Shown here: positions 36,719-44,581 of the stretch, piece by piece
How the letters are laid out: each line of letters begins with the position of its first letter
Position numbering within the stretch: the first letter of the stretch is position 1
Assembly: GCA_021799405.1 (NCBI GenBank)
Contig: JAJZAL010000005.1
Coordinates: 1 to 64,000, forward strand
Origin: Acidobacteriota bacterium
GTDB taxonomy: Bacteria > Acidobacteriota > Terriglobia > Terriglobales > Acidobacteriaceae
Direction: 5' to 3'
DNA: 64,000 bases
The notes under the pieces: model-generated
The model's input: the letters and a program-made list of their open reading frames with translations, nothing else
Databases searched by the model: none
Told to the model about the DNA's origin: nothing
Made by a program: the position numbers and the translations under genes

Positions 36719-37471
36719 TCATGCTTTCTGCGTCCCCATCAGGAAGTCCAGGTGAAGCACGTGCGCTTTCACCTGATCCTCTGTCCTGTACTTCTCCATC
36801 CGAGCCATCTTCAACATGCGCAGAATTCCTCCGGGATTGCCCCCGCTCCATTCCACAATGGAGTGTAGCGTCGCTTCAAGATTCCTCGCCTCCACTCCCG
36901 CCCGGATCGCCTCCTGCCTGGCAAATTCCAGCGCAATCGGCGCGGGGAGATTCTTCAGTTCCAGTCGCTCCGAACGGTCTGCGCACATCGGCTGCAGTGC
37001 CCCAATGTCTTCCATATGCGGAGACCGGGCAGCAAAAATAATGGACCGCTGGTCGTAATCACTGAAATCCTTGATCAGGCCCGTAACCACGCGGGACGGT
37101 CCAGCCACATGATCCAGCACCAGCACGAACGGAAACTCGGTCAACGCGCGCCGAACAATTCCCTTCAATGAAGGCGTGCTAAGCGATCTCGTGCTCTCCG
37201 GTAAACGCAGTTCGCGCTTTTTGAGCGCGCGCAGCCCCTCGAAAAGAGCCTGCAGCGCGTCTTTTGGATTACGGAGATGCGGCACATATAGCGAATACGG
37301 TTGTGTCTTCGCAAACGTCTGCAGAAGTCGAGTTTTCCCCACTCCTTCAGGGCCGAATACCAGCATGGATTTGCGCTTCCTCACCTGCGCCTCCAGCCGC
37401 GCCAGTTCTTCTGATCGCGCTATAACTGCTACATACTCATCATCTGGCAAATGAATCACTCTTTCCGCCAT
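36719..37471 (-). CDS. AAA family ATPase
   Basis: A 250-residue AAA/STAND-type ATPase. ATG 37471 follows GAGGATGCGG; ATG codons at 37477 and 37486 are alternatives. Walker A is FGPEGVGKT at about residues 39-47, Walker B FVLVLDHV near 120, and a sensor-like IIFAARS near 150. The C-terminal part has a winged-helix-like helical segment (GNPGGILRMLKMARMEKY). It is the last gene of a seven-gene minus-strand block, 70 nt downstream of a dynamin-like GTPase. A motor or switch for the adjacent membrane-acting GTPases is plausible inference; no partner domain is fused. Confidence 0.85.
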   Translation of the reverse strand: MAERVIHLPDDEYVAVIARSEELARLEAQVRKRKSMLVFGPEGVGKTRLLQTFAKTQPYSLYVPHLRNPKDALQALFEGLRALKKRELRLPESTRSLSTPSLKGIVRRALTEFPFVLVLDHVAGPSRVVTGLIKDFSDYDQRSIIFAARSPHMEDIGALQPMCADRSERLELKNLPAPIALEFARQEAIRAGVEARNLEATLHSIVEWSGGNPGGILRMLKMARMEKYRTEDQVKAHVLHLDFLMGTQKA

Positions 37472-37541
37472 CCGCATCCTCGGCAAGAAACCGCTTTCAC
37501 TTGGAAGCGCTCGTAGCTATCCCGATAGATATGGCATAGAA

Positions 37542-39287
37542 CTAACCTCGCCTGGACTCAGCCAGAATCGAAGCGCACTGCTCAACCGCTGCGTCAATTT
37601 GCGCTAGTTCCTCTGCTACCATTTCGTCCGCGATACGATTCGGTGCCAACGCCATTTTTACCGAATCCATAACGAACTTGATGGCCTCAGTGAGTTGCTT
37701 TTCAAAAAGGGCGATTTCCTTTTCTACTCTTTCCAGATAGTCGTATCGGATGCGTCCCGCGTTGCGCCGCAACTCCATCTCAAGTTCTTTCGTCATCCTG
37801 CGAAATATCATGTCCCGCTGCATTCGCCGCGGCAGTAGGAAGATCAGCTTCTCTTGCAAAAACTTGAACGTCGGTTCCGTGTAGTAATAGACCCCGCTTT
37901 CCACGGATAGCGACGCTCGAATGTTTATAGGAGAAACCGGTACGTCAAAAAGCACACCAACCACCTGTTGGAGCGTTTGCAGAATGTGACTCGCACGCGC
38001 AATCACCCTATCAGACAAGCCAGAAAGGTCGCGGCGAATGCGTTCGTCCTCCTGGATTCTCCAGTCTTCATAAACTCTCGCGATTTCGCCACGAACGAAC
38101 TCATCGAGCAACGCCCCAAGCTCTTCTCTCGCTTCCCTTGGATGCTCACGCTGAAATGTGCCGAATCGTGCCTTTACCCCTGGAGTTGCCTTCTGGATGT
38201 GGCGTTCTAGATCTTCCTCGATCCGTTCAACCACGCTATCCATTTCTTTGTGCAACAAGTGTTGCAGATCGCGAAAGTCCCGCTCGGCATTCCCCAGCGC
38301 AGATTCAACCTGCAACCTTACGCTCGCAAGCTCTGCACCGTTCATGGCACGGGCACGATTGCCCATGCTCGCCGCGAACCGCAGCGTTTCAGCAATCCGT
38401 AAGACATCCTGGCCTACAGACTCCAGCAATACCTGTTCCTTCTCTTCGGTGGCCAGGTATTCCAGCCGTTGGGCAATCCCCACAATTCCGCTGGCGCGCT
38501 CCGGCGAGCAAGCGGATCGCAGGTCATCCAGTGCGTATCGAGCCGAAACCGCGTAGATCTCCGGACCTGCGATTCCACATTTGTTGGCAATCTCGCGCCG
38601 CAGAAAAACAAGTAGCTCTTCCACTTCCCCGGCAGTAGCCATATCCGTCTTATTCACGACAAATAGCAACCGCGGAACTTCGCGCCGAAGCACCGTCACA
38701 AACTCCGACTCAATGGCCGTAATCGGCGGGTCCACCGAAAGCACCACAACCGCCGCATCAACTTCCCTCAGATAATTCTCTGTCGTGGCGGTGTTGTGCG
38801 CATGGGTAGATCCGATGCCCGGCGTGTCCACCAGTTCAATCCCCAGCCGAAGCAGGGGCGCAGGCCACAGCAGTTCGGCGGTCGCAACCTGCTTGCGGTT
38901 CCCTGGATTCATCGCCTCGGTAATGTATTCAGCCAGACGATGTGCCTCTATTTCCTCTGCTTCGCCGGACTGATAAATAACCTTTGCTGCTGGAACAGCG
39001 TTATAGCGCACCTGCGTAATCACGGACGTCAGAGGAAGAATCCCTGTCGGAAGGATTTCATCGCCCAGAAGTGCATTGACAATAGAACTCTTGCCCCGCT
39101 TCATTTGGCCTACTATCGCCAAGTAGAACCGGCTGCTCATCAGCTTTTCAGAAAATCCCGATAACTCTTCGTCCGCGCCCTTGAGACCTCGTCGCTCAGC
39201 GATGGAACGCAGAGCACACATCGCGCGAATCAAATCCGCTTTGCTCGTCTGCGTGTCTTTGTATCTTCGCTCGATACACTCGGCCAT
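37542..39287 (-). CDS. dynamin-like GTPase
   Basis: A 581-residue dynamin-superfamily GTPase. G1 is GQMKRGKSS (~60-68), G2 Thr in LPLTSVITQV, G3 DTPGIGS (~154-160), G4 NKTD (~212-215). Long helical regions typical of a bacterial dynamin-like stalk fill residues ~290-560, and the C-terminal half has a hydrophobic/aromatic paddle-like segment (KFLQEKLIFLLPRRM). Bacterial dynamin-like proteins bind, tether, fuse or protect membranes and often work as adjacent pairs. A second GTPase of the family lies three genes upstream in the same block. It starts 12 nt after the DUF190 stop, so co-translation is likely. Confidence 0.92.
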   Translation of the reverse strand: MAECIERRYKDTQTSKADLIRAMCALRSIAERRGLKGADEELSGFSEKLMSSRFYLAIVGQMKRGKSSIVNALLGDEILPTGILPLTSVITQVRYNAVPAAKVIYQSGEAEEIEAHRLAEYITEAMNPGNRKQVATAELLWPAPLLRLGIELVDTPGIGSTHAHNTATTENYLREVDAAVVVLSVDPPITAIESEFVTVLRREVPRLLFVVNKTDMATAGEVEELLVFLRREIANKCGIAGPEIYAVSARYALDDLRSACSPERASGIVGIAQRLEYLATEEKEQVLLESVGQDVLRIAETLRFAASMGNRARAMNGAELASVRLQVESALGNAERDFRDLQHLLHKEMDSVVERIEEDLERHIQKATPGVKARFGTFQREHPREAREELGALLDEFVRGEIARVYEDWRIQEDERIRRDLSGLSDRVIARASHILQTLQQVVGVLFDVPVSPINIRASLSVESGVYYYTEPTFKFLQEKLIFLLPRRMQRDMIFRRMTKELEMELRRNAGRIRYDYLERVEKEIALFEKQLTEAIKFVMDSVKMALAPNRIADEMVAEELAQIDAAVEQCASILAESRRG

Positions 39288-43200: not shown

Positions 43201-43276
43201 ATTCGCTCCACGCCGTTGCCATCCGTTGTACATCGCCTCTGCTGCCGAGAGAACTCGCAGCCGCAGAGCCAACGAT

Positions 43277-44581
43277 TTATGCCTTCACCGGTTTCTTCCA
43301 GCGTTCATATACCGAGGCGCCCGCATAGCGTGCCCTCCCACCGAGTTCTCTTTCGATTTCCAGCAGGCGATTGTATTTCGCAATGCGCTCGCCGCGACTC
43401 GCAGAACCCGTCTTGATTTGCCCCATGCCCGCAGCCACCGCAAGATCCGCGATGCTGGTGTCGTCGGTCTCTCCGGAGCGATGCGAAATCACCGCGCCGT
43501 AGCCGTTCTCTCGCGCAAGCTGAATGCAGTCCAGCGTCTCGGTGACCGTTCCAATCTGGTTCAACTTGATCAAGATCGCATTCGCAATGCCGCCTTTGAT
43601 CCCCTCCCGGAACAGTGCCGGATTGGTCACGAAATTGTCGTCGCCTACAAGCTGAATCTTGCCGCCAAGCTCCCTTGTCAGCTTCTGCCATCCGTTCCGG
43701 TCATCCTCGGCCATCCCGTCTTCGAGCGACCATATCTCTGGATACTTCTTCAGCCAGCTTCCCCAAAGAGCAATCATTTCGTCAGAACTCTTCTTGCTCT
43801 TATCGGACTTCCAGAACTCATACGCCCCGTCCCGGTACAACTCGCTGGCTGCGGGATCCAGCATGATCACGATATCTTCACCCGCCTTATAGCCAGCCTT
43901 CCCGATCGCCTCAAGAATCAACTCGATCGGCTCTTCATTCGACTTCAACTGCGGAGCAAAACCGCCTTCATCGCCCACCGCGGTGCTGTAGCCCTTGGCG
44001 TTCAGCACGGCCTTCAGCGCATGAAAAGTCTCCGCCGAAGCACGCAGTGCCTCGTGGAAATTCGGAGCCCCAACCGGCGAAATCATGAACTCCTGGAAGT
44101 CCACGCTGTTGTCCGAATGCCTGCCACCGTTCAAAACATTCAGTCCCGGCGTCGGCAATAGATTCGCATCCTCCTTCACCAGGGCTGCATACAATGGCAG
44201 GCCCCGGTCTACCGCCGCCGCGCGCGCAACAGCAAGAGAAACGCCAAGAATCGCATTCGCCCCCAGGCGCGCCTTGTTCGGCGTTCCATCCAGTTCGCAA
44301 AGCTTCTTGTCCAGCGCCCTCTGATCGTTCGCGTCAAAACCGCGAACCGCTCGCTGGATTTCATCTTCCACGTGGCCCCTTGCCTTCAATACGCCTTTAC
44401 CGCCGTAGCGCGACTTATCTCCGTCGCGCAATTCCACCGCTTCACGCTTGCCCGTCGATGCACCGGAAGGGACCTTCGCCGTTCCCTTTACACCATTCGA
44501 TAGCGTCGCCGTGACAGAAAGAGTCGGATTCCCGCGCGAATCCAGAATTTCCAGTGCTTCCAGTTTTGCAATTTCAGACAT
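43277..44581 (-). CDS. eno: enolase (phosphopyruvate hydratase)
   Basis: A full-length 434-residue enolase. It interconverts 2-phosphoglycerate and phosphoenolpyruvate in the cytosol with Mg2+. Visible landmarks: LDSRGNPT and PSGASTGKREAVELRD at the N-terminus, acid/base Glu in VGDEGGFAP, metal ligands in MLDPAASELY, WSLEDGMAEDD and QLVGDDNFVTN, catalytic Lys in ILIKLNQIGT, and the phosphate-binding SHRSGETDD. The substrate-loop His is kept, but the flanking segment reads LNGGRHSDNSVD rather than the usual INGG[AE]HADNNVD, hinting at a second enolase subtype. It heads a block of dynamin-like GTPases and DUF190 genes, an odd location for a glycolytic gene, and is divergent from the Ehr operon. 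Confidence 0.95.
   Translation of the reverse strand: MSEIAKLEALEILDSRGNPTLSVTATLSNGVKGTAKVPSGASTGKREAVELRDGDKSRYGGKGVLKARGHVEDEIQRAVRGFDANDQRALDKKLCELDGTPNKARLGANAILGVSLAVARAAAVDRGLPLYAALVKEDANLLPTPGLNVLNGGRHSDNSVDFQEFMISPVGAPNFHEALRASAETFHALKAVLNAKGYSTAVGDEGGFAPQLKSNEEPIELILEAIGKAGYKAGEDIVIMLDPAASELYRDGAYEFWKSDKSKKSSDEMIALWGSWLKKYPEIWSLEDGMAEDDRNGWQKLTRELGGKIQLVGDDNFVTNPALFREGIKGGIANAILIKLNQIGTVTETLDCIQLARENGYGAVISHRSGETDDTSIADLAVAAGMGQIKTGSASRGERIAKYNRLLEIERELGGRARYAGASVYERWKKPVKA

What the first reader, a model, noticed from the sequence alone, without database searches (positions are those of the whole stretch)
36719..44581. Seven-gene block: enolase, two dynamin-like GTPases, three DUF190 domains, a CxxC protein and an AAA ATPase
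The genes are all on the minus strand. Six of seven gaps are 11 to 106 nt, with good ribosome sites, so this looks like one operon. Two unequal dynamin-like GTPases suggest a membrane tethering, fusion or repair machine. PII-like DUF190 proteins could sense a metabolite or nucleotide, and the duplicated C2-CH protein and AAA ATPase could be adaptor and switch. I know of no described system with this gene set. The functional reading is inference; the gene set and spacing are seen.
Basis: partly seen in the sequence, partly recalled or inferred. Interest (0 to 1): 0.8.

Follow-up and report, generated by a model that had tools for sequence, protein, structure and literature searches.

The report
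Fluoride-switched operon with dynamin-like GTPases
This block of bacterial genes sits behind an RNA switch that senses fluoride, and in many relatives the same dynamin-like GTPases are wired to fluoride switches and fluoride channels, which suggests an unrecognised membrane arm of fluoride resistance.

Summary
A fluoride riboswitch (RF01734, 40.6 bits) with a terminator-like platform lies upstream of the enolase gene. A second one (59 bits) faces the other way, ahead of a Hyf-like operon. The block is therefore a predicted fluoride-induced operon.

The link is not a local accident. In relatives the same operon holds the fluoride channel CrcB between DLP-A and the CxxC/DUF190 genes; the window has none there. 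Of 80 loci encoding the DLP-A N-terminal domain, 71 have a fluoride riboswitch upstream on the same strand within 3 kb, 56 of them within 300 nt. Many are predicted translational switches on the dynamin itself; the window lacks that extra switch. In 25 genomes, all 38 strong dynamin hits lie within 10 kb of such riboswitches. Plasmids of Burkholderia and Lichenicola show the link too.

Known: fluoride riboswitch operons with enolase, CrcB and Hyf. In the papers I could search I found none that adds dynamin-like GTPases. What they do is inferred: most likely they protect or remodel the inner membrane under HF stress. New variant of a known kind.

The parts
44801..44879 (-). Fluoride riboswitch aptamer (RF01734) in the leader of the enolase block
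   Evidence: cmscan 40.6 bits, gathering score 34; own model R1 44.2 bits (R1 was built with this aptamer among its 25)
44783..44815 (-). Terminator-like hairpin overlapping the aptamer's 3' strand, followed by TTTTGT: predicted transcriptional expression platform
   Evidence: Fold of 44770-44885, z -4.07, 0 of 200 shuffles fold as well; sequence. The simple terminator scan did not list it
43277..44581 (-). Enolase, second copy
   Evidence: TIGR01060 611.6 bits; 63% identical to the genome's other enolase, 79-87% to six enolases of relatives' blocks; closest solved chain 4yws
41110..43200 (-). DLP-A, 696 aa: N-terminal helical domain (about 18-152), GTPase (about 205-420), helical stalk
   Evidence: Dynamin_N 90 bits; AlphaFold model pLDDT 80.3, pTM 0.51; Foldseek IniA, BDLP, 5owv with low TM-scores; G1, G3, G4 motifs
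40431..41003 (-). CxxC protein, 190 aa, duplicated CPxC...CNFH and CDxC...CxxH halves; in relatives a CrcB gene lies between it and DLP-A
   Evidence: 11-sequence alignment with all eight Cys/His invariant; DUF6062 below cut-off in 7 of 11; no fold match
39670..40419 (-). Double DUF190 (PII-like) protein; open frame extends to 40518
   Evidence: PF02641 two stretches, 198.6 bits; PF00543 P-II 39.1 bits
39300..39656 (-). Single DUF190 protein
   Evidence: PF02641 116 bits; solved relatives 2dcl and 1o51
37542..39287 (-). DLP-B, 581 aa, partner dynamin-like GTPase
   Evidence: Dynamin_N 103.7 bits; profile hits 2j68, 5owv, 6j72; 23-28% identical to 20 of 21 aligned DLP-B-like proteins of relatives, 42% to one
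36719..37486 (-). P-loop ATPase (AAA_16); in some relatives it follows a fluoride riboswitch of its own
   Evidence: PF13191 33.5 bits; 15-sequence alignment; in L062, L070 and L091 about 0.55-0.6 kb after a riboswitch, in L064 after a riboswitch and a pyrophosphatase gene
45057..45118 (+). Fluoride riboswitch of the divergent Hyf-like operon; its 3' strand is predicted to pair with a downstream SD and AUG
   Evidence: cmscan 59 bits; fold z -3.72, 1 of 200 shuffles as stable
45015..45043 (+). Promoter-like TTGACA-17-CATGAT before the + strand riboswitch
   Evidence: 10 of 12 positions; consensus match only, 0.6 expected
45225..52647 (+). Divergent Hyf/complex-I-like operon (HyfC, E, F, G, H/I, B-like), behind the second fluoride riboswitch
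   Evidence: Pfam and NCBIfam; large subunit without [NiFe] cysteine motifs. HyfE-like 46182-46862 has no Pfam hit and is named by position
35788..36522 (+). YfcE-type phosphoesterase, convergent with the block; also present in 12 of the 40 stretches fetched
   Evidence: TIGR00040 70 bits; HMM hits in L060, L062, L064, L069, L070, L072, L074, L075, L076, L086, L091, L094

Best explanation
The block is a fluoride-inducible resistance operon. When intracellular fluoride rises, the Mg-fluoride complex folds the leader aptamer, the terminator does not form, and the whole block is transcribed (predicted from sequence; the class mechanism is known; about 0.93 likely). The second enolase restores a glycolytic step that fluoride inhibits (inferred from known biochemistry, about 0.85). 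The two dynamin-like GTPases form a heterotypic pair on the inner membrane, where they protect, seal or remodel it while HF is leaking in and CrcB is exporting fluoride. The PII-like DUF190 proteins, the CxxC protein and the ATPase tune that membrane machine, or the fluoride channel, to nucleotide state (all inferred, about 0.45). In this genome CrcB works from another locus with its own riboswitch-like leader.
For: Two divergent RF01734 aptamers; terminator-type leader. Own genome: third RF01734-like match (31.9 bits, below the gathering score of 34) before a CrcB gene (CrcB PF02537). Relatives: the whole set enolase, DLP-A, CrcB, CxxC, DUF190 x3, DLP-B behind a riboswitch on four contigs (L061/L062, L065, L068/L069, L071) and partial sets on others. 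80 loci with the DLP-A N-domain: riboswitch upstream on the same strand within 300 nt in 56, within 3 kb in 71; CrcB in 56, DUF190 in 59 of 80. Predicted translational fluoride switches directly before DLP-A in relatives. All 38 Dynamin_N hits at E below 1e-20 in 25 chosen genomes lie within 10 kb of an RF01734 match over the gathering score. Burkholderia plasmids repeat the link with N-domain and riboswitches; four other plasmid dynamins have neither.
Against: No expression or resistance data. The block lacks CrcB here. The DLP-A leader riboswitch of relatives is absent from the window. DLP-B-like proteins are mostly 23-28% identical to the window's, so the partner is not one strict orthologue. 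Neither DLP of the window has a transmembrane-like stretch, so membrane action is by family analogy, and the DLP-A model matches solved DLPs only with low TM-scores. Of the 80 loci, 8 have no riboswitch match. Some dynamin hits lie without a riboswitch: G332:C35 and three genes in G121. In Lichenicola the riboswitch points at CrcB and the dynamin is divergent, without N-domain. A same-genus genome, G085, has no strong dynamin hit, so the system is patchy.
Confidence: 0.7

Rival explanations
1. Channel-complex rival: DLP-A, its N-domain, the CxxC protein and DUF190 are not general membrane-repair factors but a regulatory or assembly complex for the fluoride channel CrcB, as GlnK is for AmtB (recalled comparison). 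DUF190 would gate or cluster the channel and the DLPs would shape the membrane around it.
For: CrcB lies between DLP-A and CxxC/DUF190 in relatives; the stand-alone N-domain lies beside CrcB in L076, L085, L191 and L194; a 232-aa N-domain plus DUF190 protein, P0151, is predicted on a short contig.
Against: The window's block has no CrcB; 24 of 80 loci show none in the held stretch, some of it cut by contig ends; L188-L190 have the N-domain after a riboswitch with no CrcB hit.
Confidence: 0.25
2. Fluoride-lock rival: the GTPases are themselves fluoride sensors. GDP with aluminium or magnesium fluoride mimics the transition state, so fluoride would lock the G domains into assembled dimers on the membrane, a protein-level response on top of the RNA switch.
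For: G1, G3 and G4 motifs intact in the rows shown; the GDP.AlF4 mitofusin structure is cited as a tethering model in PMC6104087 (passage). Otherwise recalled biochemistry.
Against: No direct evidence; many GTPases would behave so in vitro; cellular Al and F levels are unknown.
Confidence: 0.12
3. Defence or general envelope-stress rival: the DLP pair repairs membranes after phage or antibiotic attack and sits by chance near a fluoride riboswitch.
For: PADLOC LeoA matches of 61.1 and 38.1 bits; three riboswitch-free DLPs in G121 (L087) show that other DLP systems exist in the order.
Against: Riboswitch matches in 72 of 80 loci and in four of eight plasmid loci, all four from another phylum; predicted switches directly on the dynamin gene.
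Confidence: 0.03

Closest known systems
Fluoride riboswitch resistance operons, e.g. Enterobacter cloacae FRM ppaC-uspA-eno-gpmA-crcB-orf5249 (PMC5533749, abstract and passages)
   Same: RF01734 leader and an extra enolase; CrcB in relatives' operons and pyrophosphatase in one relative's fluoride locus
   Different: No dynamin, DUF190, CxxC protein or ATPase named among its six genes; the whole words 'dynamin' and 'GTPase' do not occur in that text
Known fluoride-riboswitch gene lists (review PMC11139923, passages; PMC2864571, passages)
   Same: Between them they list exporters, Na+/H+ antiporters, pyrophosphatase, haloacid-dehalogenase-like genes, enolase, formate hydrogenlyase and mutS; several are present here or in relatives
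   Different: 'dynamin' does not occur in either main text and 'DUF' not in PMC11139923
Campylobacter Cj-DLP1/Cj-DLP2 dynamin pair (PDB 5owv; PMC6104087, abstract and passages)
   Same: Unequal side-by-side DLP genes; profile hits 5owv_A and 5owv_C
   Different: That operon putatively has an HcpA-like beta-lactamase, and the passages seen mention no fluoride genes; DLP-A here has an N-domain that also occurs alone
DUF190 / PII-like proteins (PF02641; PDB 2dcl, 1o51)
   Same: Sequence family and P-II similarity
   Different: Three domains in adjacent genes inside a dynamin operon; ligand unknown
Formate hydrogenlyase / hydrogenase-4 (Hyf) genes under fluoride riboswitches
   Same: Subunit set and riboswitch; formate hydrogen lyase is listed in PMC2864571
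   Different: The large subunit here shows no [NiFe]-binding CxxC motif by eye, so it is probably not a hydrogenase

Membership tests
Fluoride-riboswitch-controlled operon | RF01734 aptamer above gathering score in the 5' leader | tested here: met
   40.6 and 59 bits against 34
Fluoride-riboswitch-controlled operon | Expression platform that fluoride binding would switch on | tested here: met
   In silico only: overlapping terminator-like hairpin on the - strand (not listed by the simple scan), SD-burying fold on the + strand
Fluoride-riboswitch-controlled operon | Fluoride exporter in the same operon (usual companion, not defining) | tested here: not met
   No CrcB hit in window 34001-54000; present in relatives; own CrcB is on C19
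Fluoride-riboswitch-controlled operon | Induction by fluoride and contribution to resistance | not testable with these tools
   Needs cells
Bacterial dynamin-like protein pair | Dynamin_N GTPase with GTP-binding motifs | tested here: met
   Both proteins over the Pfam cut-off; G1, G3, G4 of DLP-A seen in the 8 of 50 rows printed
Bacterial dynamin-like protein pair | Overall DLP fold with helical stalk | tested here: inconclusive
   DLP-A only: pTM 0.51; the first 11 Foldseek hits are IniA, BDLP and the 5owv/5oxf pair at E 6e-11 or better, but TM-scores by query are 0.24-0.32
Bacterial dynamin-like protein pair | Membrane binding, tethering or fusion | not testable with these tools
   No transmembrane-like stretch found in the window's two proteins; needs liposome assays
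DUF190 (PII-like) | PF02641 domain | tested here: met
   Three domains over cut-off
DUF190 (PII-like) | Nucleotide or other ligand binding | not tested
   No ligand-site comparison was made
DUF6062 (CxxC protein) | PF19538 over its cut-off | tested here: not met
   16.7 bits against 27 for the window's protein; 7 of 11 members match at E up to 1, best 0.0011
[NiFe] hydrogenase (divergent operon) | Two CxxC motifs in the large subunit | tested here: not met
   Translation read by eye; the motif is recalled, not from a call
Anti-phage dynamin systems (LeoABC, DynA) | Strong family match and defence context | tested here: not met
   61.1 bits at most, to LeoA; the neighbouring genes are fluoride genes

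The most novel reading that the evidence does not exclude
Dynamin-like GTPases, with a small partner domain that also exists alone, are a conserved cross-phylum arm of bacterial fluoride resistance. Fluoride both switches on their synthesis through transcriptional and translational riboswitches and, through GDP-metal-fluoride trapping, directly locks them into membrane assemblies that lower HF leakage or organise the fluoride channel.
Probability: 0.12. Interest if true: 0.95.

Novelty: new variant of a known kind. Interest (0 to 1): 0.78.

Why it matters
The review read here (PMC11139923, passages) describes fluoride resistance as export, pH and ion control, and metabolic adjustment such as extra enolase. 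A dynamin pair wired repeatedly to fluoride riboswitches points to a membrane component that it does not mention. It also gives bacterial dynamins, whose physiological triggers are mostly unclear, a simple chemical inducer (NaF) with a built-in RNA reporter, so their function becomes directly testable. It gives DUF190, a domain of unknown function with solved structures, a physiological setting.

Tried and rejected
Phage-defence reading: PADLOC matches are weak and the context is fluoride genes.

Replacement-copy idea for the dynamins (as for enolase): rejected for this genome because it has no other strong Dynamin_N hit (the genome is 93% complete).

Intra-operon riboswitch in the window: looked for with model R1, filters off; 12 matches listed, none in the enolase-DLP-A gap, and none there in Rfam at E up to 1.

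CxxC protein: no PDB relative (best E 0.2), no fold match at E 0.001. The phylum search found only the own genome, 1 of 297, although 10 stretches of relatives in the order supplied sequences for its alignment; the phylum sample missed or failed to match those genomes, so one search is not evidence of absence.

Results against the reading: G121 has three DLPs with no RF01734 match (L087); G332:C35 has a Dynamin_N hit (E 1.3e-12) without a riboswitch; in Lichenicola the riboswitch points at CrcB, not at the dynamin.

Literature: nine searches showed no paper joining bacterial dynamins to fluoride. (fluoride, dynamin, riboswitch, bacteria) had 0 papers; (dynamin, crcB) 5 and three, all on other subjects by title. 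(DUF190, fluoride) had 3, off subject by title. Searches listed only 20 of 27, 20 of 151 and 15 of 148 papers. Only titles and abstract starts were seen in listings. Most subscription papers are not held; the original fluoride riboswitch paper is not. Supplements were not searched.

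
Full report
What is there. Start corrections: DLP-A most likely begins at ATG 43200 with GGAG ahead, giving 696 aa, a length like that of most listed homologues; the double-DUF190 protein probably starts at the internal ATG 40419. No promoter-like site and only weak terminator-like sites were found inside the block.

Rfam finds two fluoride riboswitches in the divergent intergenic region: 44801-44879 on the minus strand (40.6 bits), leading into enolase, and 45057-45118 on the plus strand (59 bits), leading into a Hyf-like operon. 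The minus-strand leader folds into a hairpin that uses the aptamer's 3' ACTCC strand and is followed by TTTTGT (z -4.07, 0 of 200 shuffles as stable). PMC2864571 (passages) notes for this class that predicted terminators often overlap the motif, so that ligand binding should raise expression. The simple terminator scan did not list this hairpin. The plus-strand leader instead folds its 3' strand onto a downstream Shine-Dalgarno and AUG (z -3.72, 1 of 200 shuffles as stable).

The rest of the genome. A held genome of the same or a very near strain (DLP-A 99% identical; 93% complete) has three RF01734-like matches: these two and one at 31.9 bits, below the gathering score, 57 nt before a CrcB gene (PF02537, 108.8 bits). 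It has two enolases over the Pfam cut-off; the block copy is 63% identical to the other and 79-87% to six enolases from relatives' blocks. Its only strong Dynamin_N hits are the two of the block.

Conservation in the order. DLP-A homologues were sought in 150 genomes of the order: 57 match at E 0.001, many of them weakly; at E 1e-20 or better I count 28 contigs in 21 genomes, the own one included. I fetched 40 stretches around these and some other riboswitches, scanned 35 of the 40 with Rfam (L092, L093, L096, L098 and L099 left out) and annotated all 40 with local profiles built from the same loci. Of the 28 contigs, 23 carry an RF01734 match over the gathering score in the window or the fetched stretch. 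The five without are G143:C32, G021:C213, G136:C63, G136:C173 and G090:C44; in the first four the genes lie at a contig end, and in G090:C44 model R1 finds two weaker matches. The full layout, riboswitch, enolase, DLP-A, CrcB, CxxC protein, double DUF190, single DUF190, DLP-B, is seen on four contigs (L061/L062, L065, L068/L069, L071), with partial or reordered sets on others. A Hyf operon behind a divergent riboswitch faces it in L063, L065, L067 and L082 as in the window. In the window CrcB is missing from its slot. DLP-B-like proteins are diverse: the window's is 23-28% identical to 20 of 21 aligned ones and 42% to one.

A second set of loci. A scan of genome contigs with the DLP-A N-terminal domain found 83 relatives, of which the best 80 were kept, from about 68 assemblies by accession prefix (counted by eye). 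Some are the same contigs as above, so the sets overlap. The titles are acidobacterial names (some recognised from memory), but the search used one peptide pattern and reaches close relatives only. With a covariance model R1 built from 25 aptamers, to my knowledge none of them one that lies directly before DLP-A (alignment, model), 72 of 80 loci have a riboswitch match at E 0.01. It lies upstream of the domain on the same strand within 300 nt in 56 and within 3 kb in 71 of 80; 8 have none. CrcB is in 56, CxxC in 44, DUF190 in 59, the ATPase in 30, a DLP-B-type GTPase in 67, enolase in 47 of 80 (stretches are often cut by contig ends). For scale, the own genome holds three riboswitch-like matches in 4.17 Mb, so one within 300 nt upstream of a given gene by chance is of the order of 1e-4 (my estimate).

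A direct switch on the dynamin. In many of these loci a riboswitch sits in the gap before DLP-A, about 67 nt before the domain. In the loci scanned at the gathering score these gap elements are not listed, so they score below it, while some riboswitches with DLP-A as the first gene score above it (L073 40.2, L074 39.9, L075 39.9 bits). In 36 of the 56 examples, aligned, the aptamer core and pseudoknot strands are nearly invariant, and in 27 of the 36 rows, by my count, the SD and start read GGAGGAGTCATG, complementary to the aptamer's 3' strand ATGACTCCT(C). Four were folded: z -3.5, -5.4, -4.3 and -2.4, each with the SD and AUG paired. The window lacks this element.

Across the phylum. The N-domain profile matches 27 of 396 phylum genomes. 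RF01734 over the gathering score was found in 21 of the 22 of these that lie outside the order. A riboswitch lies within 5 kb of the domain in G166, G486, G445, G496, G438, G179, G369 (downstream), G189 (downstream and divergent), G332:C49, G186, G311 (32 bits, below the gathering score), G151, G228, and on the opposite strand of weak partial hits in G420 and G473. It does not in G279 (9 kb by Rfam; R1 has a weak match at 97 nt), G380, G332:C35, or, by Rfam, at the weak partial hits of G467, G425, G221, G336 and G421. The domain also occurs alone, as a protein of mostly 150-180 aa.

Dynamins as a whole. In 25 genomes searched for Dynamin_N, 19 chosen because they have the system and 6 because they have no or only weak DLP-A matches, all 38 hits at E below 1e-20 lie within 10 kb of an RF01734 match over the gathering score, and the six others have no hit better than 3e-5 (read). 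One weaker hit, G332:C35 at E 1.3e-12, has none, and G121 of the order has three DLPs without one.

Beyond the phylum. A search of 72,556 plasmid records with DLP-A gave 8 records. Burkholderia cenocepacia (two near-identical) and B. multivorans carry a dynamin in islands with 5 RF01734 matches each, beside enolase, pyrophosphatase, MutS, DUF190 and Hyf genes; one riboswitch points into the dynamin's own gene pair; the N-domain is there both fused and alone. Lichenicola cladoniae has a dynamin without N-domain, divergent from a CrcB gene whose leader holds the one riboswitch. The other four (Anabaena, Nocardia, Lysinibacillus, Paenibacillus) have no riboswitch over the gathering score and no N-domain in the stretches fetched. 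This is a discriminating control.

Proteins. DLP-A and DLP-B profiles hit the Campylobacter pair 5owv, IniA 6j72 and BDLP 2j68. The DLP-A model (pLDDT 80.3, pTM 0.51) has an N-terminal helical domain, a GTPase and a long helical stalk; its best PDB matches are bacterial DLPs and mitofusins with low global TM-scores. G1, G3 and G4 are intact and no transmembrane-like stretch was found. The CxxC protein has no solved or fold relative.

How it works. Shown from sequence: fluoride aptamers, switchable leaders, gene order and its conservation. Established: fluoride inhibits enolase, and fluoride riboswitches switch on exporters and enolase (PMC11139923 passages; PMC5533749 abstract and passages). 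Inferred: the DLP pair acts on the inner membrane during HF stress, tuned by PII-like DUF190, CxxC and ATPase partners. I put the fluoride control at 0.93 and the membrane-protection role at about 0.45, with a CrcB-complex role as the main rival.

Novelty. Enolase, exporters, pyrophosphatase, mutS and formate hydrogenlyase are known members of this regulon. I found no source that names dynamin-like proteins or DUF190 in it, with the limits that three of those listings were capped and most subscription papers are not held. The kind of system is known; these components make it a new variant.

Noticed in passing
window 48325-49854 (+): The Hyf-like large subunit behind the second fluoride riboswitch shows no [NiFe]-ligand CxxC motifs by eye, so this 'formate hydrogenlyase' is probably a non-hydrogenase proton-moving complex.
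   Followed up: partly
window 45133-45228 (+): A 31-codon leader frame just after the SD and AUG that the + strand riboswitch fold buries; its stop overlaps the likely GTG start (45225) of HyfC, suggesting translational coupling.
   Followed up: partly
window 52965-53104 (-): Group II intron domain match (RF02003, 122.2 bits).
   Followed up: no
G108 (L064, L065) and G130 (Acidicapsa dinghuensis by its contig, L068, L069, L132): 14 fluoride riboswitch matches per genome at E 0.001; in L068 one stands before RND efflux genes, in L064 others before MFS, MutS-V and a pyrophosphatase-ATPase pair.
   Followed up: partly
L200, L202, L207 (Burkholderia plasmids): Fluoride islands with five riboswitches, two enolases, two pyrophosphatases, MutS, Hyf genes and a dynamin; the two B. 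cenocepacia records are typed conjugative.
   Followed up: partly
protein P0151: A 232-aa protein with the DLP-A N-domain and a precomputed DUF190 domain, a possible natural fusion, from a contig of at most 1,179 bases.
   Followed up: no
L087 (G121:C5): Three neighbouring dynamin-like genes without any fluoride riboswitch: a different DLP system in the same order.
   Followed up: no
L188-L190: In distant families the stand-alone N-domain follows a fluoride riboswitch with no CrcB, DUF190 or dynamin hit in the held stretch, so the small domain may act alone.
   Followed up: no
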